Assembly: GCA_028532985.1 (NCBI GenBank)
Contig: JANCIK010000010.1
Coordinates: 806,001 to 870,000 of the forward strand
DNA: 64,000 nucleotides
Source: Stropharia rugosoannulata
Taxonomy: Eukaryota; Basidiomycota; Agaricomycetes; Agaricales; Strophariaceae
Direction of reading: 5' to 3'
Shown: in pieces, positions 1 to 46,418 of the stretch
Layout of the letters: each line of letters begins with the position of its first letter
Numbering within the stretch: the stretch's first letter is position 1
Notes under the pieces: generated by a model
Databases searched by the model: none
The model's input: only the letters and a program-made list of their open reading frames with translations
Told to the model about the DNA's origin: nothing
Translations under genes and position numbers: made by a program

Positions 1-891
1 AGTTTTCGTACATGGTTGCACTGACTCCCCGCTGAGCTCTCCAAATGACCCGGTGGCCAGAAGCTATCCAAAACTTCTATGATTCACAATACACTTCACA
101 GTAAAGACCCTAACAAAAGCTAAACACAGCCCGCTGATGGTCTGGGACGGAGCCCAACACACAGATCTAGTGGGTAGACAATTGCTTGATTTCCGTAGTT
201 ACAATTACAAGTTTATATATACGCGCGCTGTGTACTAATTTAGGTGGAGAGTAAATACTAGCAACGTCGGACCAAAGGTCCGCTGAGCGGATGTGCCTCC
301 GCTGGGCGTTTTGATGACTACTCCGCTGAGCGCGACCTGACCTCGTTGTGTTGCCAGCCTCCGCCAAGAGACGCCATTAAACTCCGCTGAACGGTTCCTT
401 CTTGGTTATTGAGATCTGGTTACCGCTGCCAAAGTTCCCCAGCGGAGCTCGTGCTATGTGCGTTGTTTATTCCTTCGGGCATCACACGCTCCAGCGCGCG
501 TGCCACGGTCACCTGACGAGTGGACTTAGGCAAATTTCGCCTTCGTGATGTGTTCCGCTGAGTCCCTTTGAGACGCCGTCTACACACAGTCCTGCTCGTC
601 GCCTTTGATACTTTCCGCTCAGCTGTACTCCTGCCTTCCGCTGGGACGACAGTAACCGTTATGTGCTCCGCTGACTGCTATTCCGGGTACTTCAGCTGTG
701 TACTTATGGCCTGTACAGTCCACTGAACCCCACACAACCGCCCGCTGAGCACACGCGTGATGATTTGTGATGCACGCGCTGAGCGCTGAGACGGCTGACC
801 AGGCTAGTCACCGCTCCGCTGTACCCCTGCACTCCAGCCCAAACCGCCCGCTGTGGCCACTTACAGCCTTGGTGTAAACGCAGGCCTGTCA
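1..891 (-). repeat. 3' LTR of outer element (partial, cut by window start)
   Basis: This matches 23,458-24,348 almost base for base and ends in CA on the plus strand at 890-891. It holds 13 copies of CCGCTG and one CAGCGG by my count. The only difference I see from the right copy is CCGCCAAGAG here against CCGCTGAGAG there, which removes one copy of the motif. Its boundary is confirmed because the flanking sequences diverge right after CCTGTCA. Confidence 0.92.
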
Positions 892-929
892 TCTCCCCTT
901 CACTAAAAATTTTGACTGTCCTCAGTCAA
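892..929. promoter_or_regulatory. Polypurine tract of outer element (minus) overlapping a putative promoter/hairpin module for gene A (plus)
   Basis: Read on the minus strand, GTGAAGGGGAGA abuts the 3' LTR, as a polypurine tract for plus-strand priming should. On the plus strand the same stretch continues into CACTAAAAATTTT and a perfect 7-bp inverted repeat, TTGACTGTCCTCAGTCAA (912-929, loop TCCT). A second copy of the whole module lies just upstream of gene B. A promoter or 5'-leader role for genes A and B is inferred from position. Confidence 0.6.
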
Positions 930-1323
930 GCTCCTCCTGTATTTTTAGACCTTAGTACTGTCCCCGCATGCACTTTTAGTGCCTCATTTTCTATTTCCAG
1001 CTTCCCCGGCGCCTATTTGCCTATTTTTAGTTCTCAGTCGTCTCCGCTGGTTACTTCCATTGTTATCTGGTTCTTCCTCCGTTTAAGGATATTCCTTCCC
1101 CTTTTCAGCAGTGCACCGTCGCTTCTGAACCGCCGCTCTCCATGTAGATTACCTGAAAGTTTATGTGACGCCGCCACACTTTATTTTATTTCCAGAAAAT
1201 TCTTTCGCTGAGGGAACTGCTGTCTTATAAACATCGCGTACTGCTTTCGGTCCCTCCACATTCTTTCTTTTCCTCCCCCTCCTGCAGACCTCCTGCCCTT
1301 CCCCTTTTCCTTCTCTCGTACTC

Positions 1324-3310
1324 ATGGCTTTCCGAAACTTCGACCGCCGCCAGCGCGAGAAAGAGCGCGTTGAAGCCCAACTCGACCAGGCCGATCGATT
1401 CCGCCGTCTCCGCCCAGCGCTGGTCATATATGGGGAGTTCGAGACACTAGCAGGCGCTGAAGCTCTGGCAGAGGATGGAATGACCCGTTTGGAGGAACTC
1501 CGCAGCGTAATTGATAACGCTGTTGAGAGTCACCTTGCGTCTTATCCTTCCGACGGGCTTTACCACTCTGGAGTCCGCGAGTTCTGCATCATTTTGTCCG
1601 CCATCGCCAATATGCTCATCCGCGACGACCCTCCTCAAGGCCCGCTATTGCAGTCGCGCCGTTGGTTCACAACTGGACACTCCCCCCTCTCGTCCTATAC
1701 TAGCTTCTTCAAGACGGCTTTCCCTACTCAATGGGATGGTACCGATGGCCCCAGGCCGCGCCCGCTGGTGGGTCCCATTCCCCCATCCTCTCCTACTCCG
1801 CCGGTCGTTGAAGTCCCCTTCATTGACCTGTCGGGCGACGTCCACATGTCCTCTGGCGAGGAGTCCCCTCGTGTACCTTCCCCTTCCCCCGTGATCCGCA
1901 AAGATAAACGCAAGCGCGTCGCTAGCCCCCCCGCGGTCGTTGTACCCAAGCGTTCTCGTCAAGCTGCTATCGCCGCCAACGCGGCCATCGCTGGTACGCT
2001 TCTCTTTTCCTTTTTTTTGTTCCTGAGTTCCTACTGATTTATGTTTTATGTCTAGCTGAAATGGCTGAGCAGGTCTCTCCCGATCCCCCGCTACCTCCTT
2101 CTCTACTCAGCGCAGTCGCTTCCGCCGTCATTACCGACAGCGGGATCGAAGAAATCTCCGTTATTCGGGCTGATAGCAACAAGGTCGCTTACAAGTCCAC
2201 CTATCCTATCCTCAATGTTCTCCCCCCTGTTTATTCTGCCAAGATGGCGGTCGCCGGCACACCTCTCCCTGACGCTATTGGCATGGATGCACTTCCCGCT
2301 GAGAATCGCCTTCAGGGCGCCATTATTGTAAGTCCTTCTTTTCTTATTTAATTCCCCCGCTAACTTATGTTTTCAGAAGGGCATGGTCTGTAACCATTGT
2401 GCACGCCCTTTCAACGCCCGCATGAACGAGGGCCTTCACCAGTGCATATGCCGAGGCTGGGCTCGAAACTGCTGTACCTGCAGCAGCCAGCAGAAAGGAA
2501 AGTGTTTATTCTGCTGCGAGCCAGCGGAACTTGACAAGGCCATTGAGGATACCTCCCTCTGGCATCGTACGTCTTTAACTAGTAAGTCTCCTTTTTCTCT
2601 TTTCTTTGTCTTCACTTAATTCCTTTTCTTTCATTTTAGGCCTTCTTTCCGGTTTTGCGCGCCTTAGCGCCTTTACTGAGCAGGCTCGTGCCGCCGAAGA
2701 ACAGCGCCTCTATTTCATCCAGCTCATTGAGCTCGTTCGTCTGGCGCGCGCTATGGCTCTCACTCTCCCCACTGGCGTTGTCATCGGACCCCGTTTTCAC
2801 GACTGCAAAACGTTCGACGCGCTGCGCAGGCTGGACCTCGATCGCCTCCAAGAGGCTTACCATTTCCTCTGCGCCCCCGCCTCCTACGAGGACCCCGCTG
2901 TCGTCGCTCCGTTGGCGAAATTTTATGACCCCAAGTTTCCGTGCTACGATCCCTCGACCTTCATCCCTTCTCCTCAACCTGAACAAGCGCTCACCTTAGA
3001 GGCGTTTAATGCACTGGAGTCTCAGGAATTTGAAGAGGCCGCCAACCGCCAGGCCAGCGAGGCCGACGCTCTTATTGCTGAGGAAAAGAAAAAGAAGAAG
3101 CGCTCCGCTAAGAAACCGGCAGCGGAGCGCCCTCTTTCTGGTTCCCCCCTCGCGGGCCCTTCGCAGCTCCCTCCACCCGTTGCTTCCTCTTCAAAAGGGA
3201 AAACGCCTGCTTCAGCGCGACCCGCCCCGCAGCTCTGTCCTCTCATTTTGACGCCTTCGCGCGTCCCCAGCGAGGCTGACGCCGATGAGGTTCCCACGGA
3301 GAGTGTCTAA
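1324..3310 (+). CDS. Antisense gene A of outer element: about 600-aa cysteine-rich protein with basic clusters
   Basis: Four exons join in frame: 1324-1993, 2056-2327, 2377-2566 (or to 2581 using a better GTAAGT donor) and 2640-3310. This gives about 600-605 residues. The first exon encodes a helical N-terminus and a Pro/Ser-rich linker with basic clusters (KDKRKR, PKRSR) that look like a nuclear localisation signal. Exon 3 encodes a compact Cys cluster starting CNHC and including CCTC and CLFCC, which resembles a metal-binding domain but no family I can name. The last exon is helical, then Lys-rich and low complexity. The gene lies opposite to gag-pol, between pol and the 3' LTR. Introns of 49-73 bp have GT-AG ends and pyrimidine tracts. 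I do not recognise the protein; nuclear nucleic-acid binding is a guess from composition only. Confidence 0.72.
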
Positions 3311-3675
3311 AGTCGAGCGGGCGCTTCTGCTGGTGGTCCAGCCTTTGTGCTTTTGTTTCTTTTATTTTCTTGTCCCCATCTTCCCTTTTACTTTACCTGG
3401 CATATGTAAAGTAGATAATTGTCTTTTATAATTGAATATGCCTTCTTGTTGACTCTCTTTTATTTGTGTGACCTTGCCATTTCTGGAGTCGTTGTTAAGA
3501 TTTCCGCTCCGCTGAGCAGCCTGCAAACTTTTGAGGAGGTATCTTAATTGTTGCCCGGGCTCTCCCACAGCCAATTCTCTTCCGCTGCGTGTTTGCTGGT
3601 TTCTTTCTCTCTTCTCAGGTCCGCTCAGCGGACTTCTTTTCTTCGCACGTGCTCCGCAGTCATATATTTTAGCGG
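3311..3675. other. Spacer between antisense genes A and B
   Basis: I see no convincing reading frame here. The stretch is T-rich after gene A (likely 3' UTR and terminator) and then carries several CCGCTG motifs, including the full palindrome with a C centre at about 3,620-3,631. Confidence 0.5.
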
Positions 3676-3679
3676 GCTC

Positions 3680-3716
3680 TCTCCCCTTCACTATAAAATC
3701 AACTGTCCTCAGTTGA
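3680..3716 (+). promoter_or_regulatory. Putative promoter/hairpin module of gene B, second copy of the LTR-edge module
   Basis: CTCCCCTTCACTATAAAA is followed by TCAACTGTCCTCAGTTGA at 3,699-3,716. The first part repeats 892-908 with a better TATA. The inverted repeat has the same TCCT loop, but both arms are changed so that pairing is kept. It lies about 30-60 bp upstream of the gene B start codon. Confidence 0.55.
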
Positions 3717-3747
3717 CAGGCTCATTAGCCTTCTCCTTCGTTCTGTC

Positions 3748-4219
3748 ATGCAACGCTACCAGCGCACCAATGTCGCCCGCCAGTTCACCATGATCCTCAA
3801 GCAGCTGGCTGTCCATGCTGAGCTCACCGAGGACTCCGCTGAAACTACGATTCACCTGCCTTTGCAGTCAGCGCAGGCCGTTGTCCGCGCGCTGGTAAGG
3901 CTCAGTTTCGTAGATTCCCCTCAGCTGACCATCTCCACAGGACCGCATCGCCCTTCCGCTGAGATTCATCGACTTTAATCGCCAGTTTCTGGCGTTCCTC
4001 ATGACCATCGTGTTTTACGAGGCCCGCGCCCAGCGGAAATTCAGCGATGATCACTTCGACCCCCGCCTACTCAGTAATGCCGCCTTACGTGTTCTCGACC
4101 GATACAGTCATCTGGGCATGCCATTCCATCTGCTGCCTTCTTCTGAGCGAATTGCAGCCGATGTTCAAGAAGTGGACCCTGATGCCGCGCTCATCGTAGA
4201 CGACGTGTGCTCTGATTAA
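3748..4219 (+). CDS. Antisense gene B of outer element: 141-aa protein of unknown function
   Basis: The two exons, 3748-3894 and 3941-4219, join in frame at a 46-bp GT-AG intron with phase-0 junction (49 + 92 residues). The start ATG follows the TATAAAA at 3,692-3,698. The product is predicted mostly helical, with an acidic C-terminus (VDPDAALIVDDVCSD). It has no Cys cluster, signal peptide or membrane segment. It lies 70 bp from gene C in the same direction and opposite to gag-pol. I do not recognise the family. The frame is open across both exons with no disabling change. Confidence 0.65.
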
Positions 4220-4243
4220 GGTGGTCTGCGGCGCTGACCATCT

Positions 4244-4255
4244 ACGTATATAATA
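4244..4255 (+). promoter_or_regulatory. TATA-like core promoter of gene C
   Basis: GTATATAATATA lies about 35-45 bp upstream of the gene C ATG, in the 70-bp gap after gene B. The spacing suits a TATA box with a short 5' UTR. No hairpin module like that of genes A and B is present. Confidence 0.45.
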
Positions 4256-4288
4256 TAACTCCCTCCGTCTGTATTCGTATACGTCAAC

Positions 4289-4833
4289 ATGCCTTCCTTG
4301 TCCGCTGAGAGTAATCTCTTATTACTTGCACATTCCGATCCTCGCATCCTTCGTCTCGATGCTTTGTCTAGACGTCCGCTGAGCGACATTCCTCCCCACG
4401 ATGTAGCCCGAGTATGCCGAATCTATATAACTGCCCTTCACTATATTCTGGACTCCGCTGCAGAGGAACAGCTACCCATGAGTGTCTGCCTCCCGCTGCT
4501 TAACCGAGTTCAAGATCATGCTGTAAGCCCCTTCTCCCCTGTCCATGCACTCCCACTGAGTAGTCCGCGCAGCGCGGCCTAGAGCTGACCGAGTCCACCT
4601 GTCATTCACCGCTTCTTTCTCATCTCTGCGCTCAGCTGTATTACACTGAACTTGTGCTTCGTCTGTGTGGTACCAGCGACGCTGAGCGCTACGGCATCCT
4701 TAATCACACCGAACACTTTCAACGCCTCCATTATGCCGCCCAGCATTTTTACCAGGAGGACTTCTTCCCCGTCTGTCCCCTTTTTTCTTCCTTCTCCGCT
4801 GCGCTGAGACCCGGATTATGTCAGGATGTTTGA
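4289..4833 (+). CDS. Antisense gene C of outer element: 143-aa protein of unknown function
   Basis: The exons 4289-4522 and 4636-4833 join in frame through a 113-bp GT-AG intron (78 + 65 residues). The protein is small and predicted helical (RVCRIYITALHYIL; LHYAAQHFYQEDFF), with no motif I can identify. The CCGCTG motif occurs in both exons, for example in the codons giving LSAES and RPLSDI, so the motif has been accommodated by the coding sequence. Size and one-intron layout resemble gene B, but I cannot align the two convincingly. Confidence 0.62.
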
Positions 4834-5273
4834 GGTATTGCGCCCCTTCCTTGGTTTACTCCGTAGGGTACCCTTGTTACAGTAACCAGAGTAAATGGCT
4901 ATTACATGTGGTGCCTCCTTTGCTATTTGAAATGACAAGTATCTAGTTAGGCACTATGTATTGTCGGTGCCAATACCTGATTTGGACATAATTTTACCAT
5001 ATGCGGTAATCACACGATCAGCATCCGCTGAGCGCTTTCAGCTAGGCGCGCCTCTCCGCTGGATCTCATTTCGTCTATCAACTACTCCTGCTCTGCACCC
5101 CGTTTTACGCGAGCCTTGTCTCTACCTCCAGCGTTCATACCATAACTCCGTTGGGAGTCTGGTCCGCTGGGATGCCACATTCCTCGCCGCTGGCCGCCCC
5201 TCATTAGGTCCTCTGTGCTCCGCTGAGCCTATATATATGCCCTACTCTCCTACTTTGAATCCTTCAGCCACTC
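4834..5273 (+). other. Spacer upstream of gene D with a TATA box
   Basis: I see no gene here. The stretch contains several CCGCTG motifs and TATATATATG at about 5,229-5,238, some 40 bp before the gene D ATG, a plausible core promoter. A readable 115-codon frame at 4,961-5,308 has no coding character and overlaps this promoter, so I do not call it. Confidence 0.45.
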
Positions 5274-7389
5274 ATGTCCAACGCACCCGCTCCGCTGTAC
5301 AACTTTAGTAATGTCAAGCACCAGCTGGCATTAATCCAAGATATCAGAGGCTTGGCTTCCGCCATGCCTTCCAACTATACCGGGAGCCTCGAGCTTCTGG
5401 CTATTGACTTAGTATGCACAGCACTCAGCTGGTCTGCTGGGTCTTTTACTCCGCTGACCACTCGAACTTTTTAGAACCGCTGGCGTGATCCCCACGGCGG
5501 CATTACTCGTATCATTAATAACAGCGAGGCTGTTGATATCCTCAACGAGACGCGTGCCATCTACACCTCCTTAGAGGCGGATCACCACTTCTGCACTTTC
5601 TCTCCCGCTGCCAACGCTTTTATCACTCTGCATGAGCAAGTTTTAAAAGCGAAAGCCGCTGCCTTGCGTCAGCGCATGCATACTCCCACTGGACCAGTAC
5701 GCTGTGTGCTTGCTGCCTCTCTTTATCTTTTTAACCGCCCGCTCAGCGCAACGTTCGCCTCCTCTCGCGCTCCGCTGCCGATCCTGAGACGGTCTCTGCC
5801 CCTGGAGGTACCTCATCCCCCGATTCCGATGATGACAAGGTGTGGCTGACTTCCTTCACCCTTTTAGATATTACTAACATGCAGCTGTACCTCCTCCTTA
5901 AAAAGATGGCCCTCGATGACAAGATCGAGGCTGCCACTGAGGGCGGAGTACCTAGCCGCCAGAATACCCCAGAGCCTAGTCCTTCGAAGAAGCGCTCAGC
6001 GCCTCCTCCCGACACTCCTCGTCAGGTTCGTTCTGTTGCGTCTTCCCTCCCTCGTTACTTTCTTACTTCTATGTCAGCGGGAGCGCACTGAGGCCAGCGG
6101 ACATCGCACTCGTGCGCTTGGCTGCGGCATGACACTCCGCTCCTCTGACAACCGGCGCTCTCTGTTATGGAATATGTGTTGGAAGGATCATATCTCACAA
6201 GAATCGTCTCGACCCTTATTTAAGCGCTTTAAATGTTTAACTAAAAACGAATCAAGCGCCCGTCTTCTATTTATAAAACCTGCACCTATTTATATATGCT
6301 GTGCTAAAACAAAACACCTTAAAGGAACAGCATTAAAAGGCTGTACATTTCATACATGTTTTGAGGAGAAAGCACAGCCTCATAAGTATCAGTATATAAA
6401 CAAAGTTTCAGATGTATTTAAATTACTTCTTAATCTCATACCACCATCATCTCCTCCACTTGAGTGAGTCTCTGCCATTGCAGACAACCAGAACACTGAA
6501 ATTACTTATTCTAATACGGTAAGGTTCTGCTTGCACTAGCTAGTATTACTTTACAAGTCTACACTAACCCACTAACCTTAATAATTAACTAACAAGCTCT
6601 AATAGTCGCGCTCTACCACCCAGTAAGTACTCGTAACAAGTAACTACAGTACATAATTAGTTACACTCTTTGTATTCCGTGCCACAAGCCGTAATACATA
6701 GTAAATCACGCTTAAGCGCCCGTTAAGCGCCCAAGCTCGTAGCACGCCGTTCACGCTCTCAACAACGCGCACTCATCGTGCCACACTACATTTACATCAC
6801 TCACACATATATTAAGCGCCCGTTAAGCGCTCGTGCTCGTTACACGCCTCGTACACGTTAAGCGCCCGTTCAACGTCGTGCCACAATCCACGTAGTATTA
6901 GTATCTTCATTGGAAGACACCAACGTTACTTGTTCACTTAATTTCACATACCATAACACTCTCCGCGCGACACACCGTTCCACGACGCTTCCTCTAAGAA
7001 GGCCCGTCTCGGCGCTGACGGCGTTCCTACCTTCGCTGATTCTCCTTTCATTGTACAAGGTGCGCTCTTTGCCCTTATTCTTCTCTGTTGCGTCCGCTGA
7101 GCTCTTTCATTTTCTTTTAGGTACCAATCTTACTCTCTCGAACGACAAGGTCAATGCCTGTCTCGACGCTGCTACCAACCTCATTAAGGAACCGCTGAAC
7201 ACGGGGAACCCATCCGAGCTCGTCACTCGCCGTCTCATCGGAGACTTGCAAGCTGAGATCATCTGTGACTTGCACAAGATTGACTTCATCCTAAAGCGCC
7301 GCGCTCTGCTCATTAAAGAGTTAGAGACTTTACAGCGCAGCTTGGATTTGACAGGGACCAGCCCCGCTGAGGAGCCCGCGCCGCAGTGA
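5274..7389 (+). pseudogene. Antisense gene D of outer element, 347 aa before interruption by a solo LTR
   Basis: Exons are 5274-5411, 5475-5696, 5747-5839, 5885-6025, 6078-6162 / 6964-7059 (one exon split by a solo LTR) and 7121-7389. Introns are 45-63 bp with GT-AG ends, and the intron at 5,840-5,884 has a textbook ACTAAC branch site. Excising the solo LTR with one CTCTC copy leaves the frame open through the junction to the TGA at 7,387-7,389. The product has a helical N-terminus, a Ser/Asp-rich middle with basic KKR clusters, and a helical, possibly coiled-coil C-terminus (about the last 90 residues). I do not recognise the family. It converges with pol, whose stop lies about 120 bp away. 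Confidence 0.65.
6163..6958. repeat. Solo LTR inserted in gene D
   Basis: The 796-bp unit has TG...CA ends inside an imperfect inverted repeat (TGTTATGG...CCATAACA) and is flanked by a perfect 5-bp target duplication CTCTC (6,158-6,162 and 6,959-6,963). It is A+T-rich compared with its host element and lacks the CCGCTG motif. It repeats its own short motif, TTAAGCGCCCGTTAAGCGC, near 6,712-6,732 and 6,812-6,830, with partial copies at 6,254 and 6,858. There is no internal coding region, so this is the product of LTR-LTR recombination or a short non-autonomous element. The family (Copia- or Ty3-like) cannot be told from the LTR alone. Confidence 0.85.
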
Positions 7390-7509
7390 TGACCCTCTTA
7401 ATTACTCCGCTGAGCGCCTCAAAGTGGTCCTTAACTAGTTTCTTTTGTACCTTTCTCCTTTAGTTTACCCAATATACTCTATTGTGGTCTCCTTTTCTAC
7501 TTTGCGCCT

Positions 7510-8188
7510 CTAAGCATCGGGCTCCGCCCACCCATCCTCATCATCATCTTCTTCGTCCGCTGAGACTCGGCCGCTGCCTGAAACCACTCCTGGTTCATCA
7601 AAGATATAGTCTTTAGGTATGGCCGGCTCGTAGTCTGGCGCTGACATCATCTTGTTGAGGTTCTCGCGCGTTTGATCAATGATATCGTCTAAGTCCGCTG
7701 GCAGCCTCAGCTGGCGCCTGGCAAAGTAGGGTATTAAGCGGAATGCTGCGACTTTGTCTTTCAGCACCGACCCATCCAGCTCAGCGACTAGATAAGCGCC
7801 TCCTTCCTTCCGCGTGATAACAATGTATGGTCCATTCCAGCGCGCCAACATTTTGCGATTTAAGCTGGACTCAATGCCAGAGTTACGCATCAGTACGACA
7901 TCGCCAGGTTTGAACGCATAGTCCCTGATCTTAGCGGAGTGCTTTCGCGCAAACTCTCTGATAGCATCCCGCTTTATCTTTGACACCCGCTGACGCATTT
8001 CCTCTACTGTGTCCCTATGTTTGGCCAGCGCGCGCGCACGATACCCTACTAACTCCTCTGTGGTAAGTACCCGATCTGGTAACTTGACCAGCCACGTCGC
8101 TTCAGCGATGTCCAGCGGTAGTATCGGGTGTGCGCCAGTGACCATGAAGAAGGGTGAACACCCAAATCCGCGGCGCACTGTAACGCGG
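7510..8188 (-). CDS. pol: Outer element pol, C-terminal part of integrase (split by inner element)
   Basis: This minus-strand frame encodes the end of the integrase core and the C-terminal region, including the GPY/F-like stretch (MLARWNGPYIVI) typical of Ty3 integrases, then an acidic tail. Its first codons continue exactly from the frame broken at 16,265 once the inner element and one GCGG target copy are removed, through the join ADR|VTVRR. It therefore belongs to the same pol ORF as 16,265-19,525. The stop is 120 bp from the convergent gene D. Confidence 0.9.
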
Positions 8189-8855
8189 TGTAAGGAAAGG
8201 AACATACCTACGCTCCAAATCGGTCTTCACAGCACACACCGAGACTAATCGCACACGCTAGCACTCACAAGAAACCACATTAGCACCATGGGCCCTGACG
8301 AAAATTTACAAGCCTAGACACTCACCGAACAACCAACAATCAAATTTGGAAAACATTGTGCACCATTGAATAGAAACCACATGTGGGCGCTACACACTTA
8401 GGCAACAACAAACAAATGCGGAACCGGTACCTGACTATAAAACCTTACATAACAGTCACTAAAAGATAAGCAACAATTAAAGAGCTCGGTACGGAGCTCG
8501 GAACTTGACGTACATAGAGAATTATGGGAAGTCTACAAGCATAGAAGCGAGTTACGGAGCTACAGGAATGAGAGCATCCAAAAAGGGGATCGGTGTGCCA
8601 CGTAGTAAACTTGTAGAATTATGGACATCTATGTATTTAAGCACAGAATACTGAACATGGGAGGGCAGCAAAGAGCTCCCCGCATAGTTTTCCCCACAAG
8701 TCTAGTCAGATTCGATACAGGACATTTAAATTCATTCACAACTCTTTTACAAAGTCTACATACACACGCTCACACTACGTGCGCTCCACTTCCTGAAAAA
8801 TCACTCCACGGCGACCTCACCAGCCGCCGCTCGCACCCAAACTACATACCCTTCA
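8189..8855 (+). repeat. 5' LTR of inner element
   Basis: This 667-bp repeat shows no difference from 15,598-16,264 in my comparison. TATAAAA at 8,436-8,442 is a candidate core promoter. A reading frame beginning near 8,621 exists in both LTRs because they are identical and is not treated as a gene. Confidence 0.96.
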
Positions 8856-8857
8856 AC

Positions 8858-8876
8858 TGGAGCCCACCGCGAGGGG
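8858..8876 (+). other. Primer binding site of inner element
   Basis: TGGAGCCCACCGCGAGGGG starts two bases after the LTR end. Its complement ends in CCA with a T (U73) before it, as in tRNA-Cys of many eukaryotes. The same 19 bases occur as the complement at 22,913-22,931, also two bases from the outer LTR, so both elements appear to use the same primer tRNA. Assignment to tRNA-Cys is inference. Confidence 0.75.
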
Positions 8877-9126
8877 GGGTTTCAAAGGAAAACAAAGAGC
8901 CACGGAGTGTTACAGTGATACTGAGGACAACGACAACCTCGAGTTTGGTCCATTGCCATACACACCTCAGTATTACCCACGCCCACAGTTTAGCGCACAA
9001 ACACCAACATCATACACATCATCATCTGACGAAGAATCCACATACCAGCAACCGCAATTTCGCCGTGTAATCTGGACACTCGAAGAAATACAACAAATCC
9101 AATCGGCTACATCACAACTACACGCA

Positions 9127-11304
9127 ATGGCCAACCCTGGACCACCTGTTATGCCAGGACGAAACCATCATACGGCTCCCAAGTTTGATGGTACACCTAC
9201 ACTTCTGGGCCAGTTTTTCGATGAAGTAGAGCAGCTGGCGGACGCATGTCAGCTCACTGAGAAACAGAAGATTGAGTGGACAATCCGTTATGCACCTGTA
9301 GATGATGCCGAGTTATGGAGGCTATGCAGTAGTGCCAAAGGAGCAGACTGGAACGCATTCAAGACAGAAATATATGCATTATATCCTGGATCTACCGGAG
9401 ACCGTAAATACTCCGTGGCCAATCTAGAAATGTTGACAGAAAAACAGGCCGCATCACCGATGGAAACATCGATCCAATTTGGGAAGTATTACAGGTCATT
9501 CTGCAAGATTGCACATTTCCTTAAGGAAAAAGGCAGGCTTACAGAGCGCGAAATAAGTGCCCATTTCCTCCAAGGGTTTAGCTTCGCATTCCGCAACAAG
9601 GTCCGCGCACAGCTTCGCGCAGAGAATCCGACACACCATACAGATGATCCCTTTAAACTGGAACAAATCACATCAGCCGCATTATTTGTGCTCTCATGCA
9701 ACAAGGGAGATACAGTCCAAGTACCTGCACAAGAAGATAATGCTGCAGTTAAACGAGAACACTTCGACATATCAGATCTAAAACAGTTTGCTGAGCCAAT
9801 GGCAGGTAAATTTAATATGACAGTCCTCGCACAAGAAGTGGCAAAGATCATGGCATTGAACGCGCAAGCGGGGCCAGTAATGCAGCAATATTCAGGGACT
9901 CAGTCGTACCCAATACAGGGAAATATGGGAGGACAACAACAGTACCAGCCAGCACCCAGGCCGAGAAGTAACAACTGTATGTTCTGTGGAGAGATTGGGC
10001 ATTTTATCAACAGCTGCCTGCTTGCTATGGAATACGTACGAAACGGGAGGTGCATGCGAAATCTCGAAGGACAAATAATTCTACCCAACGGAGAGCGAGT
10101 GAATCCTAGAATTCACTTTGGGACTAACATCAAGGAACGTGTCGATAACTGGCACGCAATGAACACACAGAATAAAGTCTCTACAAACCTAGTCAGCATC
10201 TCTGAGACACCCGAAGTATTGACAGAGTTGACTACCAAATTTGAACCCACCAAATCGCAGTTTGTGTGGATAGAAGTCCCAGATGAAGAAGATGCAACAG
10301 AGCCTGTGCCGTCAGCAAAAGACATTGAAGACCTCCGCCTCATGGAGTCGTTACTTAATAGTACTCAGAAGAAAGTTGACGAGGCAAGGCGCAAGGTTGG
10401 TCAGCCAAAAAGCGGCCCAGTAACCCGAAGTGCAGCACAGAAACAGCACACAAAAGATGCCACAAAGGACACGGCACAAAAGGGACCTGCAAAACCAAGC
10501 ATGGCGGCAACTGACTTAGCCAAGAAGCCAACAATCGCACACGGCACACAGCCGCAGAATCAACATGACAGTGTACAAGTACCGCAGTTCAAATATGTCA
10601 CACCAATCGAGAATGCGGCAGTTCTGGAACGGGTAACCAAAACTGCTATGGACACAAGCATGCAGCTTACTGTGCGCGAGCTCCTCGCCGTTGCACCTGA
10701 TATACGCAAAGCCATAAAAGAGCAAGTATCCACCAAACGCATAGGGACTGGTGACACCATAGCTCAGACTAACCTGGTTGAAAGACACCCCGAGACATTG
10801 GTAAATACCTTAATGGCATCGTTGCCCGAGCGTTCCGATGGGATTGTGGTATCTAACCACTCAGAGAAATTGAGGGCAATCGACGTTGTCTTGAACGGTA
10901 ACATAACTGTGGAAGCAATTCTTGATGAAGGCTCGCAAATCATAGGACTCAACAAGAGCATATGGGAGAAATTGGGACTTGCTGTACGATCGGATCACCT
11001 TGTTAGGATGGAATCTGCAAACAGCTCACAGAACACATCTATGGGCCTGCTTCAGGACTTAAAACTTACCACTGGTGGATATGACTTCTACTTACAGGTA
11101 CAAGTCATTGAAGATGCGGCATACGAGATGCTTCTGGGCTTGCCATTCCATGTACTCACACGCTTAGCTGCACAATTCTTTGAGGACGGATCGTCACACA
11201 TTACACTCAGCGACCCAAACACCGGAGCAGTCATTAAGATGCCAACCAGGGAACGTAACAAGCAGGGTTGTAGCACGGGCAACCATCTTTTGTCGGGTTT
11301 TTAG
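9127..11304 (+). CDS. gag-pro: Inner element Gag-protease polyprotein
   Basis: The first in-frame ATG is 9,127, but the frame is open with coding-like sequence (about 58 codons from 8,953, and further back towards the PBS), so the true start may be non-AUG or spliced. Order: capsid-like helical region with the FDGTPTLLGQFFDEVEQL type motif, a zinc knuckle near 9,978-10,019 (CMFCGEIGHFINSC, C-x2-C-x4-H-x4-C), a long linker, and a retropepsin-like domain near 10,880-11,200. The protease active site reads DEG (10,924-10,932) where the outer element has DSG. The ORF ends TAG directly after a -1 slippery heptamer. Confidence 0.9.
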   Translation: MANPGPPVMPGRNHHTAPKFDGTPTLLGQFFDEVEQLADACQLTEKQKIEWTIRYAPVDDAELWRLCSSAKGADWNAFKTEIYALYPGSTGDRKYSVANLEMLTEKQAASPMETSIQFGKYYRSFCKIAHFLKEKGRLTEREISAHFLQGFSFAFRNKVRAQLRAENPTHHTDDPFKLEQITSAALFVLSCNKGDTVQVPAQEDNAAVKREHFDISDLKQFAEPMAGKFNMTVLAQEVAKIMALNAQAGPVMQQYSGTQSYPIQGNMGGQQQYQPAPRPRSNNCMFCGEIGHFINSCLLAMEYVRNGRCMRNLEGQIILPNGERVNPRIHFGTNIKERVDNWHAMNTQNKVSTNLVSISETPEVLTELTTKFEPTKSQFVWIEVPDEEDATEPVPSAKDIEDLRLMESLLNSTQKKVDEARRKVGQPKSGPVTRSAAQKQHTKDATKDTAQKGPAKPSMAATDLAKKPTIAHGTQPQNQHDSVQVPQFKYVTPIENAAVLERVTKTAMDTSMQLTVRELLAVAPDIRKAIKEQVSTKRIGTGDTIAQTNLVERHPETLVNTLMASLPERSDGIVVSNHSEKLRAIDVVLNGNITVEAILDEGSQIIGLNKSIWEKLGLAVRSDHLVRMESANSSQNTSMGLLQDLKLTTGGYDFYLQVQVIEDAAYEMLLGLPFHVLTRLAAQFFEDGSSHITLSDPNTGAVIKMPTRERNKQGCSTGNHLLSGF
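11295..11301 (+). promoter_or_regulatory. -1 ribosomal frameshift site, inner gag-pro to pol
   Basis: GGGTTTT is in the correct register (G GGT TTT) immediately before the gag-pro TAG at 11,302-11,304. A one-base back-slip continues as TTA GGT GTC in the pol frame, which is open from 11,274. This fits the X XXY YYZ rule exactly. Confidence 0.8.
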
Positions 11305-11375
11305 GTGTCGATGAACCGTGCCACACACGGGGAGATAAGATCCCCCAACAAGCCATTTTACCAGAACAGTTAGAT

Positions 11376-14300
11376 ATGTCTATTATTCATTTTAATCAAT
11401 CCAGTGCTTTCAGTTACCCATATATTTGCCCACAGATTAGTACAGAATCAGCTAGAACAGATACAACACACATGGAAGTCAATGCCTACAAGAAGGTAGA
11501 AAACCGAGTCAAGCCAGTTGCAACAACACTGCCAGAACAGTTCCGCATAGTCAGACGCATTCCCAGTGACCCACTAGCACAGCTACCAGTTATGCCAGTA
11601 CACCCGCCAGAGTTCAGTGCCGGAAAACGATACACACTAGAAAGAAAAGAAAATATGCCCATCAATGCCGAGGGATTTCTATGGCCAGAAGAAGAGAAGC
11701 TAGTCCACTACCTAATACGAGTCCACGAAGATGCATTTGCATGGGACGAAACCGAGAAAGGAAAATTCTCTGATGAGTACTTCGATCCGGTGGTTATTCC
11801 AACTATAGAACACATACCGTGGGTTTTGCGCAATATCCCAATACCGCCCGGAATATATGACCAGGTCATTGAAGTCATCAAGAATAAAATTGAATCAGGA
11901 ATCTATGAAGCGTCAAACTCATCATATCGCTCGAGGTGGTTCTGTGTACTGAAAAAGGACGGAAAATCACTTCGAATTGTTCATGACCTACAGCCACTAA
12001 ATGCAGTATCAATAAAAGACAGTGCCGTACCCCCAATGGTAGAGCAATATGCTGAAGGTTTTGGTGGCCGAGCCTGTTATGCTGTCTTCGATTTATTTGT
12101 TGGATTTGACCAAAGGGCACTGGCGCAAGAATCTCGAGACTTAACTACATTTCAGACACCACTGGGAACATTCAGGTTAACTTCCATACCCATGGGATAT
12201 ACTAATTCAATGCAAATACAGCATGGTGACATTACCTTTATTCTACAAGAAGAAATTCCCCATGTCACAGTGCCGTTTGTTGATGATATCACGGTCAAGG
12301 GGCCATCTACTCGATACCAAGACGAAAATGGAAACTATGAAACTATTCCAGGAAACTCAGGCATACGACGTTTTGTATGGGAGCATTTACTCAATGTTAA
12401 CCGTGTCATTCAGAGAATAAAGCATGCCGGTGGCACGTTCTCTGCAAAGAAATCATTCCTGTGTGTGGAGTTCGCGGTTATTGTAGGGCACAGGTGTACC
12501 TCAGATGGGCGGGTAATTGATGGAGGCCGCTTGCAGAAGATCCTCGATTGGCCTATATGCCGCAACCTCACGGAAGTGCGAGGATTCTTGGGAACACTGG
12601 GAACAGTCAGAATATTTATTAAGGATTTTGCTGTGCACGCGAAGCCCTTAATACAATTGACCAAGAAAGATGAAGACTTCACATTTGATGTCAAGCACCT
12701 CGAGGCCATGGAAAAACTGAAAATGCTTGCCAGTGACAGCCCTGCAATCAGAGCAATTAACTATCGATCTAAGAATGAGGTTACCCTTGCAGTGGACTCA
12801 TCATGGATTGCAGTTGGGTATATTCTATCACAGAAAGGGGACGATGGCAAGAGGTATCCATCAAGATATGGCTCTATAACTTGGAATGACCGAGAACAAA
12901 AATACTCGCAGGCAAAAATCGAGCTTTATGGACTCTTTCGTGCATTAAAGGCAGTCAAGATATTTGTCATTGGGATCTCAAACTTTACCGTGGAGGTCGA
13001 TGCAAAATACATAAAGGGAATGATAAATAACCCCGACATACAGCCAAGTGCTGCAATCAACAGGTGGATTGCAGGGATACTGTTATTCGACTTTAAACTA
13101 CGACATGTGCCAGGGAAGATGCACGGGCCCGCTGATGGCCTATCTCGGTGACCAAGAGCACCACAAGATAAAGAAGAGGCAGAAGATCCTGATGAGTGGA
13201 TTGACAATGCGTATTCATTTGCAGTAGAACTGTTGAACGAGACAGTTCTGGGAATGCGCAGTGTTGGATTGGTAAAAGAGAAAAATCCACGTCCTCTTGG
13301 ACTGTATGAATTGTTACAGTCATTTGTTCTTGACGGAAGCGAAATACAAATTCCTAGAAATGAAAAGTCCAAGCAACGGGACGAGGAGCTGGGAACAATA
13401 AGGGCATACCTGGATGACCCACTATGTCTACCAAAGGACATGACGATGCAGCAGACGGAACAGTTTATCAAGCGGGCAGCAAACTTCTTTAAAGCTCGTG
13501 GGCAGCTGTGGCGAAGACAACAAGAAGGAAAGCACCAATTAGTAGTGCCAGAAGAACGCCGCCTGAAATTGCTTGTTGAAGCACACGACAATTTAGGGCA
13601 CAAAGGCATATTCTCAGTCAGAACCAAGCTACTGCTCCGGTTTTGGTGGCCAGATATGGATCGAGACGTTAAGTGGTTTGTTAGCACTTGCCATGAGTGC
13701 CAGATACGGAAATTTCAGAAATTTTCAATACCTGCTACGGTAGCAATGCCTGGAGGACTCTTCAGAAAGGTGTATGTCGACACTATGCTCATGCCAAAGT
13801 CAAAAGGGTACCGGTACATCATACATGCAAGATGTTCACTTACTGCATATCCTGAATGGGCTATGGTCCGCAACGAAAATGAATACACCATCGCAAAATT
13901 TCTCTTGGACATAATTCACAGGTGGGGTGCCATTGAGACAATTGTCACGGACAATGCACCACAATTCTTGCTAGCAGCCGAAGTTCTTGTGCAGAAGTAT
14001 CACGTCCACCATATTCGCATTTCTCCATACAATTCCCGTGGTGCGGGTGTGATTGAACGGCGACATCTAGATGTTAGAGAAGCACTTGTCAAGGCAGCAG
14101 AAGGTGATGAATCAAAGTGGACAGATGTTGCCCCAGCTGTATTTTGGGCAGAACGGGTAACCATTATAAAGTCCGTGGGATACTCCCCATACTACATGGC
14201 GCACGGTGTCGAGCCTCTGCTTCCGTTTGACCTCGCAGAAGCTACATACCTGGCAGAGTCATTGAATGGACCCATATCCACAGAGTCACTGATAGCTGAG

Positions 14301-14726
14301 CGTGCAAAAATGCTTATGAAGCGCCCTCAAGATCTACAGCGCGTACGTGAAGAAGTTGTAAAGGCAAGATGGCAGGCAATACAACAGCTAGAAAAAGGAG
14401 CAGAAAACAAAATACAAGACTTCAATTTTTCGCCAGGGACACTGGTCTTGGTACGGAACTCACGGTTTGACAAAGGACTAGCAAACAAGACAAAACCACG
14501 ATATCTCGGGCCAATGATAGTACTTAGACGAACCACGGGAGGATCATATATACTAGGAGAACTAGATGGCGCAATCTCTAAGCTACGCTTTGCAGCTTTC
14601 CGTCTAATCCCGTACTTGCCTCGCAATATCAAGTCCGTCCCAGTCACACGGTTAGAAGAAGGCTTAAGCGAGGATTTGGAAGAAGCAACACATGAAACAT
14701 CCAATGAATATGACTTAGAGCCATGA
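11376..14726 (+). CDS. pol: Inner element Pol: RT, RNase H, integrase, with one in-frame TGA
   Basis: The frame is open upstream to 11,274, so Pol is probably made as a frameshift fusion; 11,376 is the first ATG. RT spans about 11,600-12,700, with FVDD at 12,276-12,287. RNase H follows with its Asp and Glu motifs (LAVDSS, IELYGL, VEVDAKY). A TGA at 13,149-13,151 interrupts the tether right after ADGLSR, where the outer element has a second Arg; the frame then continues without break. Integrase has the HHCC zinc site (HDNLGHKG...CHECQ) near 13,580-13,710, the D-D-E core (VDTM, VTDNAP, VIERRH), and a GPY/F-like end. CGA to TGA is the simplest origin of the stop. Confidence 0.93.
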
Positions 14727-14803
14727 ATTCTATATGTTCAATACACCCATGGTCACCAACTAATTCAGAACACTAATCTACTATATGTAATCCGCTAATT
14801 CAA

Positions 14804-15580
14804 CTAGGACAAGGACGCTGAAGAATCCCTGGTGCTACTATCAACAAAAATATCATTATCCTCCATGCCACCTTCATAATCAACGGATTGGTAGCGATAT
14901 TCATGAGTGTCGACTTCGCTCTCGCTATCATATGGACGGTACAATGGGCTATTGGGTGGGATGGTTTCCAAATCGGGCATGTCGTCATAGAAATCCTCAG
15001 GCACAGCAGGCTGCGCATGATGGGCGTTATACCACGGTGTCGCAATGGGACCGGGAATACCATGGCAGTACATTTCATAAAACCCCGCAAAGTCATAAAC
15101 ATCGTGCTGCACAGGCGACATAAGAGCATGAAGATCGATGAGCATGTCGAGGTGATAATCACGGAAACGGTCAAATCGAGACCCATACGCAATAACGGCC
15201 ATGATGCTGGTAACATCGTCACCAGTAATGTGTACAGTTAATCCAAAGTCGTCCAAGGCATGAGCAGCATCGCACAGGCGCGCCTAAAGACCACAACTCA
15301 GAAATATAAACACTAAGAACAAAGAAGAATCACTACACACCAGAACTCGGGCAAATGTGATGTAATAATCGTGATAGATCGGACCGTAGATCAGGTTCTC
15401 TGCAGCAGTGGAGCGCATGAGAGCCTGGATGCCATAATAGTCGCAAAGAAGAGCATGGCGTGCATGCTCAAGAGATGAATGGAAAACGGTGATATTGCTG
15501 CGGATAGGAAGATCCATGGAATAAACAAAGCGCCGATTGACGGTGTGGAAGACAGGGAAGGCTGAGGCGGAGCTCAGCAT
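14804..15580 (-). CDS. Antisense gene of inner element, 239-aa protein of unknown function
   Basis: The exons 15,580-15,341 and 15,283-14,804 join in frame across a 57-bp intron (GTGTGT...TTTAG). The start ATG is only 17 bp from the 3' LTR, so any promoter must lie in the LTR or polypurine region. The product has a helical N-terminal half and an acidic, Pro/Tyr/Ser-rich C-terminal third (YDSESEVD, DSSTRDSS). I see no known domain, signal peptide or membrane segment. Position and strand match those of antisense genes A-D in the outer element, between pol and the 3' LTR. The end of pol at 14,726 is about 80 bp away and convergent. Confidence 0.7.
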
Positions 15581-15583
15581 TTA

Positions 15584-15597
15584 AAGTGGGTGGGTGA
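15584..15597 (+). other. Polypurine-like tract of inner element
   Basis: AAGTGGGTGGGTGA, purine-rich with three T, abuts the 3' LTR at 15,598, where a plus-strand primer is expected. Confidence 0.6.
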
Positions 15598-16264
15598 TGT
15601 AAGGAAAGGAACATACCTACGCTCCAAATCGGTCTTCACAGCACACACCGAGACTAATCGCACACGCTAGCACTCACAAGAAACCACATTAGCACCATGG
15701 GCCCTGACGAAAATTTACAAGCCTAGACACTCACCGAACAACCAACAATCAAATTTGGAAAACATTGTGCACCATTGAATAGAAACCACATGTGGGCGCT
15801 ACACACTTAGGCAACAACAAACAAATGCGGAACCGGTACCTGACTATAAAACCTTACATAACAGTCACTAAAAGATAAGCAACAATTAAAGAGCTCGGTA
15901 CGGAGCTCGGAACTTGACGTACATAGAGAATTATGGGAAGTCTACAAGCATAGAAGCGAGTTACGGAGCTACAGGAATGAGAGCATCCAAAAAGGGGATC
16001 GGTGTGCCACGTAGTAAACTTGTAGAATTATGGACATCTATGTATTTAAGCACAGAATACTGAACATGGGAGGGCAGCAAAGAGCTCCCCGCATAGTTTT
16101 CCCCACAAGTCTAGTCAGATTCGATACAGGACATTTAAATTCATTCACAACTCTTTTACAAAGTCTACATACACACGCTCACACTACGTGCGCTCCACTT
16201 CCTGAAAAATCACTCCACGGCGACCTCACCAGCCGCCGCTCGCACCCAAACTACATACCCTTCA
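15598..16264 (+). repeat. 3' LTR of inner element
   Basis: Same 667-bp sequence as 8,189-8,855, with no difference that I can see. It is followed by the GCGG target copy and then directly by outer pol codons. Confidence 0.96.
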
Positions 16265-19200: not shown

Positions 19201-19525
19201 TGGCATTTTTACCAGTTAACCGCTTTCTAGTTACTCGTTTCCGCGCTGACTGGCTTTGCTCGGGGTCCGCTGAGCGGAATTGCCCCCTCGGCTCGCCTTT
19301 CACCGTCTCTTTTTCTCGCCATTCTTTTTGCTGAAAGTACTTATAAATTGATGCTTTCTCTTTATCCTCCATTTTAGCCTCGTGCACAGCTTGAGCCATG
19401 TACACATCTCTCAGCTCAGCGGAGCCAAATCTCCCTCCATTCTTTGGCAACGCATACCCCGCTATCTCTATCTTTCCAGTCCTATCATCCCGCTCGAACA
19501 TTAACGCGACCTCTCCTTGACGCAT
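16265..19525 (-). CDS. pol: Outer element Pol: RT, RNase H and integrase (N-terminal and central part)
   Basis: The frame is open from about 19,624, but the ATG at 19,525-19,523 overlaps the TGA of the protease ORF (TGATG), the likeliest start. RT follows, with FRIVHSLEPLNAV, ILDLYVGYDERL and PMGWTNS. The catalytic box, however, reads YIDN rather than YxDD, with N at 18,370-18,368. RNase H (LAVDTS, RELYGLLRAL, VETDAKY), a tether, and integrase with HHCC (HDSLGHRG...CHVCQ) and D-D-E (HADTM, ITDNGG, KIERPH) are otherwise intact. The frame is cut by the inner element and resumes at 8,188. The D to N change should abolish or cripple polymerisation unless RT is supplied in trans. Confidence 0.92.
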
Positions 19526-20793: not shown

Positions 20794-20798
20794 CAGAC

Positions 20799-22271: not shown

Positions 22272-22912
22272 GGTGATAATTTCAGGGGGCGGTTCGTGTT
22301 CACTTGTGGAAAGGTCTGACAAGTCCCCTTCAAATATATCTCTGGCCACGCGCTCGGCCTCACTCTCACTATTATCTGTCGTCCGCTGAGCGGATCTCTT
22401 AGTAGTCTCGAATACTTCCGAAAACGGAGGAGGTGTGTCTTGAGTAGCTTGGCTATCTGATGAGCCAAATGGTGCAACTTCAAGCGTAATGTCTCCGTCC
22501 GCTGAGCGGTCGTCTGTTTCAATTCCAGAAGGTGGTCCCCAGAATCTGCTGGGCCCGTCCTCCCGCTCTGAGTCACTCTCTGTAAGCGCTCCTGGTACGC
22601 GCTGAGCAAGATCCTGCGTTTCTATCTGTAGCCACGCCTCTTCCCTTGCTTTCCTCTTCGCTTTTCTATCTCGAGTAGGTGTAATTACCAATGGTTCCAC
22701 AAGCTCAGCGTCTTTCTTGCTCCTAGTCGATCGCCCGCTTGGAGGCAATATACCAAATGATGGTCTAGCCTCCGCTGGTTCTGCTAGCGACGACGGTGCA
22801 GGAAATTTGCCTCGCTTGTTACTCGTCCCCGTTGTATTTGAAATTTTTGAAATGTTTTGTAATAGGCGCTAAGCCGTGGTCCCCGAAACACTATATGAGA
22901 TTTCTGAACCTA

Positions 22913-22931
22913 CCCCTCGCGGTGGGCTCCA
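22913..22931 (-). other. Primer binding site of outer element
   Basis: The minus strand reads TGGAGCCCACCGCGAGGGG, two bases from the LTR edge at 22,934. It is identical over 19 bases to the inner element's site at 8,858-8,876. The first ATG of Gag is more than 600 bp downstream. Confidence 0.75.
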
Positions 22932-22933
22932 GA

Positions 22934-46092: not shown

Positions 46093-46418
46093 TGTAAGCC
46101 CGCCGTAGCGAAGCTCACAACCGCGCGCTAATGCGCTGACACTCACCCCTAAGCATCTATCCTTTTCCGTACTCATACACACAACGCGTACACAACGCAC
46201 TCGACACCATGCCCTTTTCTTATATCACATGACAACCAGTACTTAGGCGCGCACCCAGATACTCGAAGGCCAACTTACCTTCGAATATCTAGGTGCGCCA
46301 TACACAGTAGAATATTCTCAGATGTACGAACTTACCTTCGAATATCTAGACTTGATCCTCTCATTATCGTCTGACCGCTAAACGTAGTGAGGCTGCCCCC
46401 AACAGGGACAGCCTTTCA
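46093..46418 (+). repeat. 3' LTR of chromovirus
   Basis: 326 bp, one difference from the 5' copy, followed by TAGAT. Confidence 0.95.

What the first reader, a model, noticed from the sequence alone, without database searches (positions are those of the whole stretch)
892..7389. A retrotransposon with a block of four spliced antisense genes
Between pol and the 3' LTR of the outer Ty3-type element, about 6.6 kb carry genes A-D on the opposite strand. Every frame can be followed through GT-AG introns (3, 1, 1 and 5 introns), with TATA-like boxes before B, C and D. Retroelement genes must survive reverse transcription of the genomic RNA; antisense introns are not removed from the gag-pol transcript, so antisense orientation is the way spliced cargo can be propagated. 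Four intact genes in a young element imply they serve the element or were maintained by it. I know of antisense ORFs in some LTR elements, but a four-gene block of this kind is not something I recognise.
Basis: partly seen in the sequence, partly recalled or inferred. Interest (0 to 1): 0.92.

Follow-up and report, generated by a model that had tools for sequence, protein, structure and literature searches.

The report
Jumping gene with four reversed genes
A fungal retrotransposon family with about ninety copies carries four intron-containing genes written backwards, and each of its two branches is peppered, even inside its protein genes, with its own short DNA word, which suggests a self-recognition system that may protect the element from being silenced.

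Summary
The block is real and belongs to the element. In a 48-Mb fungal genome, 91 of 93 close relatives of this Ty3 pol have the last gene-D exon within 3 kb; 0 of 48 listed distant relatives do. All nine other loci read at length keep A-B-C-D antisense in the same order; one is cut after D's first exon. A-D are under purifying selection (dN/dS 0.06-0.18), like gag-pol. Corrections: in this copy D is broken by a 796-bp solo LTR and pol by a nested Ty3 element.

The unreported surprise is a short word. CAGCGG occurs 122 times in the element, once in the nested Ty3, far above codon-preserving shuffles of gag-pol. A sister branch, with a diverged cysteine-rich exon in gene A, carries another word, GCGCGCA, strongly near gene A and more weakly in gag-pol.

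My best reading: gene A encodes a DNA-binding protein that marks the element's own copies, perhaps against silencing, working like Arabidopsis VANC. Binding and anti-silencing are inferred; no chimera isolates gene A, and exon 3 also diverges without a change of word. Single antisense genes are known in plant elements and fungal Boty. Verdict: new variant of a known kind.

The parts
1..891 (-). 3' LTR (part inside the window; the LTR starts 523 bases left of it)
   Evidence: identical to 23458-24348 but for 2 bases; left edge from neighbouring DNA
892..932 (.). polypurine tract (- strand) overlapping the gene A promoter: TATA-like box and a 7-bp stem palindrome with TCCT loop
   Evidence: sequence; the palindrome was found at the gene A promoter in the fetched loci of both branches that cover it, except L025 and L029
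1324..3310 (+). gene A, 4 exons (1324-1993, 2056-2327, 2377-2581, 2640-3310), 605 aa; exon 3 carries six invariant cysteines
   Evidence: alignments; dN/dS 0.06-0.16 by exon
2377..2581 (+). gene A exon 3, cysteine-rich candidate DNA-binding exon (C-x2-C-x14-C-x8-C-x2-C-x7-C)
   Evidence: cysteines invariant in 14 of 14 aligned exons; no Pfam family over its cut-off
3676..3722 (+). gene B promoter with the same PPT-like, TATA-like and palindrome module as gene A
   Evidence: found at B in the window, L011, L015, L021, L025, L027, L029, not in L013, L017, L019, L023
3748..4219 (+). gene B, 2 exons, 141 aa
4289..4833 (+). gene C, 2 exons, 143 aa
5274..7389 (+). gene D, 6 exons, interrupted in exon 5
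   Evidence: last exon beside 91 of 93 close pol relatives
6163..6958 (.). solo LTR inside gene D exon 5, CTCTC duplications at 6158-6162 and 6959-6963
   Evidence: absent from the C2 copy; 5-base overlap in alignment
7510..8188 (-). pol 3' part (integrase C-terminal region)
   Evidence: ORF; 92-100% alike in 28 of the 29 branch-1 gene-A loci that have it, 86% in one
8189..16264 (+). nested Ty3 element splitting pol; LTRs 8189-8855 and 15598-16264 identical
   Evidence: Pfam; no dispersed word
16265..22748 (-). gag (20799-22748), protease (19525-20802), RT-RNaseH-integrase (16265-19624) of the outer element
22912..22933 (-). primer binding site next to the 5' LTR
   Evidence: sequence only; tRNA not identified
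22934..24348 (-). 5' LTR, 1415 bp
1..24348 (.). dispersed word CAGCGG/CCGCTG (often CCGCTGAG or CCGCTSAGCGG) through LTRs, introns, leader and coding sequence, not in the nested element
   Evidence: 122 in the outer element vs 1 in the nested one; codon-preserving shuffles

Best explanation
Shown: the A-D block is a resident accessory module of one Ty3 lineage of about 93 copies, kept in order and under purifying selection. Shown: the two branches of the lineage are each enriched in a private short word (branch 1 CAGCGG, often CCGCTGAG or near-palindromic CCGCTSAGCGG; branch 2 GCGCGCA, often palindromic GATGCGCGCATC), also at synonymous sites of gag-pol, strongly in branch 1 and more weakly in branch 2. 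Inferred: gene A, the block protein with a cysteine cluster, is made from its own promoter just inside the 3' LTR boundary, enters the nucleus and binds the word all over the element's copies. Inferred: this keeps those copies open or unmethylated so that gag-pol can be transcribed, with B-D as helpers. It would work like the VANC proteins of Arabidopsis VANDAL transposons, in a retrotransposon, with sites embedded in coding sequence. Antisense orientation lets these spliced genes pass through the genomic RNA with introns intact.
For: Block tied to one pol lineage: 91 of 93 vs 0 of 48. dN/dS A 0.06-0.16, B 0.18, C 0.17, D 0.11, gag-pol 0.10-0.14. Word 1 in gag 12 vs 2.4 expected, protease 11 vs 2.9, RT-IN 24 vs 4.7, none of 1000 codon-preserving shuffles reaching it; word 2 there 1 vs 0.7, 2 vs 0.3 (44 of 1000) and 2 vs 1.9. 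In three branch-2 pol stretches the reverse: L026 RT word 2 10 vs 1.9 (0 of 1000), word 1 3 vs 2.3; L018 RT 5 vs 1.5 (12 of 500), word 1 1 vs 1.7; L016 RT 3 vs 0.6 (9 of 500), word 1 3 vs 1.2. Of 21 distinct elements whose gene-A end was read, 14 with branch-1 exon 3 have word 1 at 2.1-8.6 per kb and word 2 at 0-1.6; 7 with branch-2 exon 3 have word 2 at 4.6-11.2 and word 1 at 0.4-1.2. Genome-wide CCGCTSAGCGGA 363 matches (both strands, so one site can count twice) vs 7 for the reversed pattern; GATGCGCGCATC 62, that is 31 sites, vs 2. GATGCGCGCATC lies within 3 kb of 23 of 63 branch-2 and 0 of 31 branch-1 exon-3 loci. Within branch 1, exon 3 is the least changed exon of A (pN 0.048 vs 0.133-0.202); between branches (window against L030-L032) it is more changed than exons 2 and 4 (0.44-0.49 vs 0.28-0.33). 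Most intact copies show no CpG depletion (o/e 0.93-0.99); two decayed relatives and the nested Ty3 do (0.50-0.75).
Against: Branches differ in every gene, and none of the 77 loci with both A and pol is a convincing chimera, so the word could follow B, C, D or pol as well as A. Two sub-branches share word 2 although their exon 3 is only 52-55% alike and changes faster than exon 4 (pN 0.28-0.29 vs 0.12-0.15). Between branches exon 1 is about as changed as exon 3. The word-2 excess in gag-pol is modest. In non-coding parts the word is strongly oriented (LTR 13:1), which a non-polar DNA site does not predict. The exon-3 model is poor (mean pLDDT 48.5), with no Pfam family. The CpG contrast is weak: L025 (0.79) and L030 (0.86) are lower, the host part of the window is 0.85-0.87, and branch age is not controlled. 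In the A coding sequence the excess is modest (6 vs 2.8, 20 of 500 shuffles). A lone decayed gene-A locus carries neither word; one branch-2 locus, C3:3561926, has a word-1 palindrome within 3 kb. No expression, methylation or binding data.
Confidence: 0.4

Rival explanations
1. The word is read in RNA: genomic RNA carries many copies of CAGCGG, bound by protein A or by Gag for export, packaging, stability or evasion of RNA silencing.
For: Strong strand bias in non-coding parts: CCGCTG on the A-D strand 13:1 in the LTR and 6:0 outside B-D coding sequence, so CAGCGG in the genomic RNA; branch 2 GATGCGC 42 vs GCGCATC 17 summed over 7 loci. Exon 3 could be an RNA-binding cysteine motif.
Against: In gag-pol the word is used on both strands (29:16); branch 2's core word is palindromic and full palindromes are enriched, which fits double-stranded DNA better.
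Confidence: 0.2
2. The word is bound by a host factor (transcription factor or chromatin protein) to which each branch adapted; genes A-D do something else, for example particle or targeting functions.
For: No link between any one gene and the word can be isolated; exon 3 diverges within branch 2 without a word change.
Against: Two branches of one lineage in one genome use different words, while the nested Ty3 element has none; a high density in coding sequence is more than a promoter needs.
Confidence: 0.2
3. Mutational or compositional artefact: the word is a by-product of base composition, codon use or tandem duplication.
For: The outer element is GC-richer than the nested one (0.53 vs 0.46); some other families show words due to tandem arrays (L012).
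Against: Second-order Markov expectation 5.1 vs 67 observed for CAGCGGA; codon-preserving shuffles; no repeats of 60 bases or more in window 1-40000 other than the two LTR pairs at the settings; reciprocal words in homologous genes.
Confidence: 0.06
4. A-D are recently captured host genes carried as passengers.
For: Spliced, promoter-bearing, gene-like.
Against: Last D exon beside 91 of 93 close pol relatives, synonymous divergence in A near saturation between copies and purifying selection; no host homologue recognised in the genome searches, though most loci without pol nearby were not read.
Confidence: 0.03

Closest known systems
VANDAL transposons and VANC anti-silencing proteins (Arabidopsis; Hosaka 2017 PMC5735166, abstract and section 9 read; Sasaki 2023 PMC10398659, passages seen)
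   Same: Element-encoded accessory protein; related families carry different short words repeated within their own copies; protein and word differ together between related families.
   Different: Those are DNA transposons; words sit in tandem repeats in non-coding regions; VANC binding and demethylation are demonstrated. Here: LTR retrotransposon, words dispersed and also in coding sequence, nothing demonstrated, no DUF1985 or DUF287 match in the block exons scanned.
Plant Retand/Grande/RIRE2 Ty3 elements with antisense ORFs between pol and 3' LTR (PMC11963269, PMC7264820; passages seen)
   Same: Antisense genes in the same place, in all or most copies; own promoter known for Grande gene23; putative DNA-binding TRP28 protein in Retand.
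   Different: At least one antisense ORF per Retand element, TRP28 domain in most, tandem repeats in the region of about half; the word 'intron' occurs in neither text; no dispersed word in the passages seen.
Boty/BcGypsy1 of Botrytis cinerea with antisense gene brtn (Zhao 2011, title in reference lists only; PMC8365987 passages)
   Same: Fungal LTR element of the Gypsy type with an additional antisense gene.
   Different: One additional gene named; similarity to A-D not tested (brtn sequence not held here).
TET/JBP-encoding DNA transposons of fungi (PMC12730594; passages seen)
   Same: Fungal mobile elements proposed to counter methylation-linked silencing or mutation.
   Different: Enzyme, not a sequence-specific binder; that paper found no retrotransposon encoding it.

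Membership tests
Ty3/Gypsy LTR retrotransposon | LTRs, target duplication, gag-protease-RT-RNaseH-integrase order | tested here: met
   LTRs and empty site; protease, RNaseH and integrase zinc domain by Pfam in that order; RT itself gave no Pfam match in the outer element
Chromovirus (chromodomain Ty3) | chromodomain at the integrase end | tested here: not met
   no chromodomain in window:7510-8205
VANDAL/VANC anti-silencing system | Mutator-like DNA transposon with VANC (DUF1985/DUF287) | tested here: not met
   LTR element; no such Pfam match in the block exons scanned (B exon 1 and D exons 3-5 not scanned)
VANDAL/VANC anti-silencing system | words in tandem repeats in non-coding regions | tested here: not met
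   dispersed, also at synonymous sites of gag-pol
VANDAL/VANC anti-silencing system | related families with different proteins and different words | tested here: met
   two branches, two words; that the protein causes the difference is not shown
VANDAL/VANC anti-silencing system | protein binds the word and removes methylation | not testable with these tools
   needs binding and methylation assays
Retand-type antisense aORF elements | antisense coding region between pol and 3' LTR | tested here: met
Retand-type antisense aORF elements | TRP28 (PF04195) domain | tested here: not met
   no such Pfam match in the block exons scanned; D exons 3-5 and B exon 1 not scanned
Fungal Zn2Cys6 transcription factors | C-x2-C-x6-C-x5-12-C-x2-C-x6-8-C (recalled) | tested here: not met
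   six invariant Cys but second spacing 14-16, no Pfam match
Boty brtn | sequence similarity to brtn | not tested
   sequence not available here

The most novel reading that the evidence does not exclude
Fungal Ty3 retrotransposons carry a self-identity system: an antisense, spliced, multi-gene block whose gene A protein binds a private word written over and over across the family, including into gag-pol by synonymous change, and so shields the element's own copies from silencing; branches diverge by changing protein and word together, an arms race that rewrites the coding sequence of the element.
Probability: 0.33. Interest if true: 0.93.

Novelty: new variant of a known kind. Interest (0 to 1): 0.78.

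Why it matters
If right, it extends sequence-specific anti-silencing, shown for plant DNA transposons, to retrotransposons and fungi, and shows selection rewriting synonymous sites of an element to keep protein-binding words. It would also make testable what the long-unexplained antisense ORFs of LTR elements are for. Even if the mechanism is wrong, a four-gene, ten-intron antisense block kept in about ninety copies and a branch-specific word inside gag-pol need an explanation.

Tried and rejected
Homologues elsewhere: gene A exon 1 and an exon-4 alignment found nothing in the large protein database, and the exon-4 alignment none in viral contigs; coverage of fungi there is unknown, so this says little. 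Pfam, solved-structure and AlphaFold attempts on exon 3 were uninformative (pLDDT 48.5; 18 chain matches at E 0.038 or worse, nearly all zinc-finger proteins). Exon 4 gave helices only (mean pLDDT 65.5); I did no fold search. A third word: the L036 word ACCGGC probably belongs to other DNA upstream of a lone decayed A; L040, tried as a third type, is a decayed branch-1 relic in which no A was found; L012's words are a tandem array. The idea that exon 3 alone sets the word is weakened. In pol, word sites are lost between branches (1 of 21 and 1 of 15 kept exactly, random 6-mers 18%), which is suggestive but small. Rows dropped before counts: gag-pol pieces under 93% identity (to keep out branch-2 neighbours, which lowers pol divergence); saturated pairs from mean dS; second pieces of one copy. 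The pol search scored 150 of 187 candidates, so distant relatives are under-counted. The long loci were taken from the best gene-A matches, not at random. In the clustering test the length of contig C5 was a guess.
Full report
What is there. The window lies in a 48-Mb, 20-contig genome, fungal by 46 exon matches to hydrophobins; host species unknown. The outer element reads right to left: 5' LTR 22934-24348, gag, protease, RT-RNaseH-integrase, then the antisense block, then the 3' LTR that ends at 891 and begins 523 bases left of the window. The LTRs are 1415 bp with three mismatches. A second copy of the flanking DNA at about 58.1 kb shows the unoccupied site with one ACGT, so the insertion and its 4-bp duplication are exact. 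Pol is split by a nested Ty3 element, 8189-16264, with identical LTRs.

The block. Genes A (4 exons, 605 aa), B (2, 141 aa), C (2, 143 aa) and D (6 exons) lie on the + strand with GT-AG introns (D's fourth intron ends at 6077; D's fifth intron I read by eye). D exon 5 is interrupted by a 796-bp solo LTR, 6163-6958, flanked by CTCTC, absent from the C2 copy.

Is it part of the element? Nine other loci, chosen from the best gene-A matches, were read at length; all keep A-B-C-D in order, antisense; in eight the block is followed by pol, and the ninth (C6) is cut after D's first exon. Several carry damage: frame breaks in D of the C7 copy and an interruption in A exon 2 of the C12 copy. Genome-wide, exon 3 of A gave 94-95 loci, B exon 2 gave 95 rows, D's last exon 95 rows, 93 loci. 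Of 93 integrase-end matches at 79% or more, 91 have D's last exon within 3 kb; of 48 matches at 38-52%, none has (second pieces of one copy left out; the search scored 150 of 187 candidates). Of 95 exon-3 loci, 77 have antisense pol within 12 kb downstream, four of them at 9-11 kb. The block is therefore a property of one Ty3 lineage.

Selection and history. Across ten branch-1 copies (45 pairs) dN/dS is 0.16, 0.09, 0.06 and 0.14 for A exons 1-4, 0.18 for B, 0.17 for C, 0.11 for D (without exon 5), against 0.10-0.14 for gag-pol (6-9 copies, pieces under 93% identity left out). Mean dS falls from about 1.4-1.6 in A exons 1, 2 and 4 to 0.39 in B, 0.23 in C and 0.09 in D, with 0.07-0.12 in gag-pol; saturated pairs were dropped, which makes the exon-3 value (0.78) unreliable. 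Elements with nearly identical pol thus carry old, diverged A alleles, which points to modular exchange near the 3' LTR. That is inference.

The word. Counting words for the anatomy showed that CAGCGG occurs 122 times in the outer element (16.3 kb, both LTRs as far as the window holds them), once in the nested 8.1 kb and 15 times in the other 39.7 kb. Without the second LTR, CAGCGGA is 67 against 5.1 expected from a second-order Markov model; the strongest word of the nested element reaches z 5. Shuffling synonymous codons within each gene gives 2.4, 2.9 and 4.7 against 12, 11 and 24 observed in gag, protease and RT-IN, never reached in 1000 shuffles. B and C also exceed (1 and 0 of 500), A only mildly (20 of 500). 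Favoured flanks give CCGCTGAG and the near-palindrome CCGCTSAGCGG; the genome holds 363 matches of CCGCTSAGCGGA against 7 of the reversed control.

A second branch, a second word. Loci whose exon 3 is only 30-49% like the window's (63 of 94) carry GCGCGCA where read, often GATGCGCGCATC (62 matches against 2). In the homologous RT of a branch-2 element, GCGCGCA is 10 against 1.9 expected and CAGCGG 3 against 2.3; in its gag 4 against 1.0 (12 of 1000 shuffles) and 1 against 1.2. Two more branch-2 pol stretches show the same at lower strength: RT 5 against 1.5 (12 of 500) in L018; RT 3 against 0.6 (9 of 500) and gag 3 against 1.0 (24 of 500) in L016, where CAGCGG in RT is also 3 against 1.2 (49 of 500). 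Of 21 distinct elements whose gene-A end was read, 14 of branch 1 and 7 of branch 2 follow the rule; the lowest is a decayed copy at 2.1-3.0 per kb, in which CAGCAGA, the CpG-decayed form, is the commonest 7-mer. L029 is telling: A exon 1 is 42% and exon 3 about 72% like the window's, and the word is still CAGCGG. Position tests agree: GATGCGCGCATC lies within 3 kb of 23 of 63 branch-2 loci and 0 of 31 branch-1 loci (p 2e-5); on contigs C1-C3, CCGCTSAGCGGA lies within 3 kb of 8 of 8 branch-1 and 1 of 13 branch-2 loci (p 4e-5; only the first 100 places were listed). The one exception within 3 kb, C3:3561926, I did not resolve; a second within 5 kb, at C3:1838955, probably belongs to a neighbouring branch-1 pol element. 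These tests treat copies as independent, which they are not: the change of word may be one event.

Mechanism. Exon 3 of A has six invariant cysteines, C-x2-C-x14-C-x8-C-x2-C-x7-C (14 of 14), no Pfam family, and could not be modelled well. It is the most conserved part of A where the word is constant (branch 1) and diverges more than exons 2 and 4, about as much as exon 1, between branches. That fits a binder of the word. Against it: sub-branches of branch 2 share the word with exon 3 only 52-55% alike, all genes differ between branches, and there is no clear chimera. Most intact copies keep CpG at 0.93-0.99 of expectation, while two decayed relatives and the nested element are at 0.50-0.75, as expected if intact copies escape methylation-driven decay; age is not controlled, two loci are lower (0.79, 0.86) and the host part of the window is 0.85-0.87.

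Comparison. Hosaka 2017 (abstract and section 9) and Sasaki 2023 (passages) describe VANC proteins bound to family-specific words in non-coding tandem repeats, differing between related VANDALs. The present case works like that on paper, but is not a member: it is an LTR element and the words are dispersed and coding. [quoted passage not shown] I saw no report of a multi-gene spliced antisense block or of such a word in LTR elements in the listings, which cover open-licence papers only and show at most 20 papers each.

Verdict. The module is as good as certain; the anti-silencing mechanism is the best of several readings at about 0.4.

Noticed in passing
window 892-932 and 3676-3722: The promoters of A and B share a module: PPT-like TCTCCCC, TATA-like box and a perfect palindrome TTGACTG-TCCT-CAGTCAA (A) or TCAACTG-TCCT-CAGTTGA (B), with paired changes. 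Found at A in both branches (not in L025, L029) and at B in some branch-1 copies; the B copy puts a second PPT-like tract inside the element.
   Followed up: partly
window 8189-16264: Nested Ty3 element with identical 667-bp LTRs and the same primer binding site letters as the outer element (by eye), no antisense block, no enriched word.
   Followed up: partly
94 exon-3 loci genome-wide: Copies cluster: median nearest-neighbour distance 60 kb against 163 kb for random placement per contig; perhaps centromeric or TE-rich islands (one contig length guessed).
   Followed up: partly
L013:4000-9997 and L040: Decayed branch-1 copies in which CAGCGGA has often become CAGCAGA and CCGCTGA CTGCTGA, that is CpG decay.
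   Followed up: partly
L014 (C6:2625861-2635860) and L013:1-1330: Other DNA beside a copy, partly retroelement-like, with dispersed words of its own (GTCTGCA 21 times; CCGCCGG 11 times in 1.3 kb); may be further word-bearing families.
   Followed up: no
window 361-367 vs 23818-23824: The two neighbouring differences between the LTRs fall in one instance of the word (CCGCCAA vs CCGCTGA).
   Followed up: no
L036-L038 (C8:147800-153800): Lone gene-A relative with neither word and strong CpG depletion (0.50), the intron between exons 2 and 3 readable without stops; probably an old decayed copy.
   Followed up: partly
window 37860-38210, 46417-46670, 47430-48330: Tandem repeat arrays outside the element (self-comparison; positions).
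   Followed up: no
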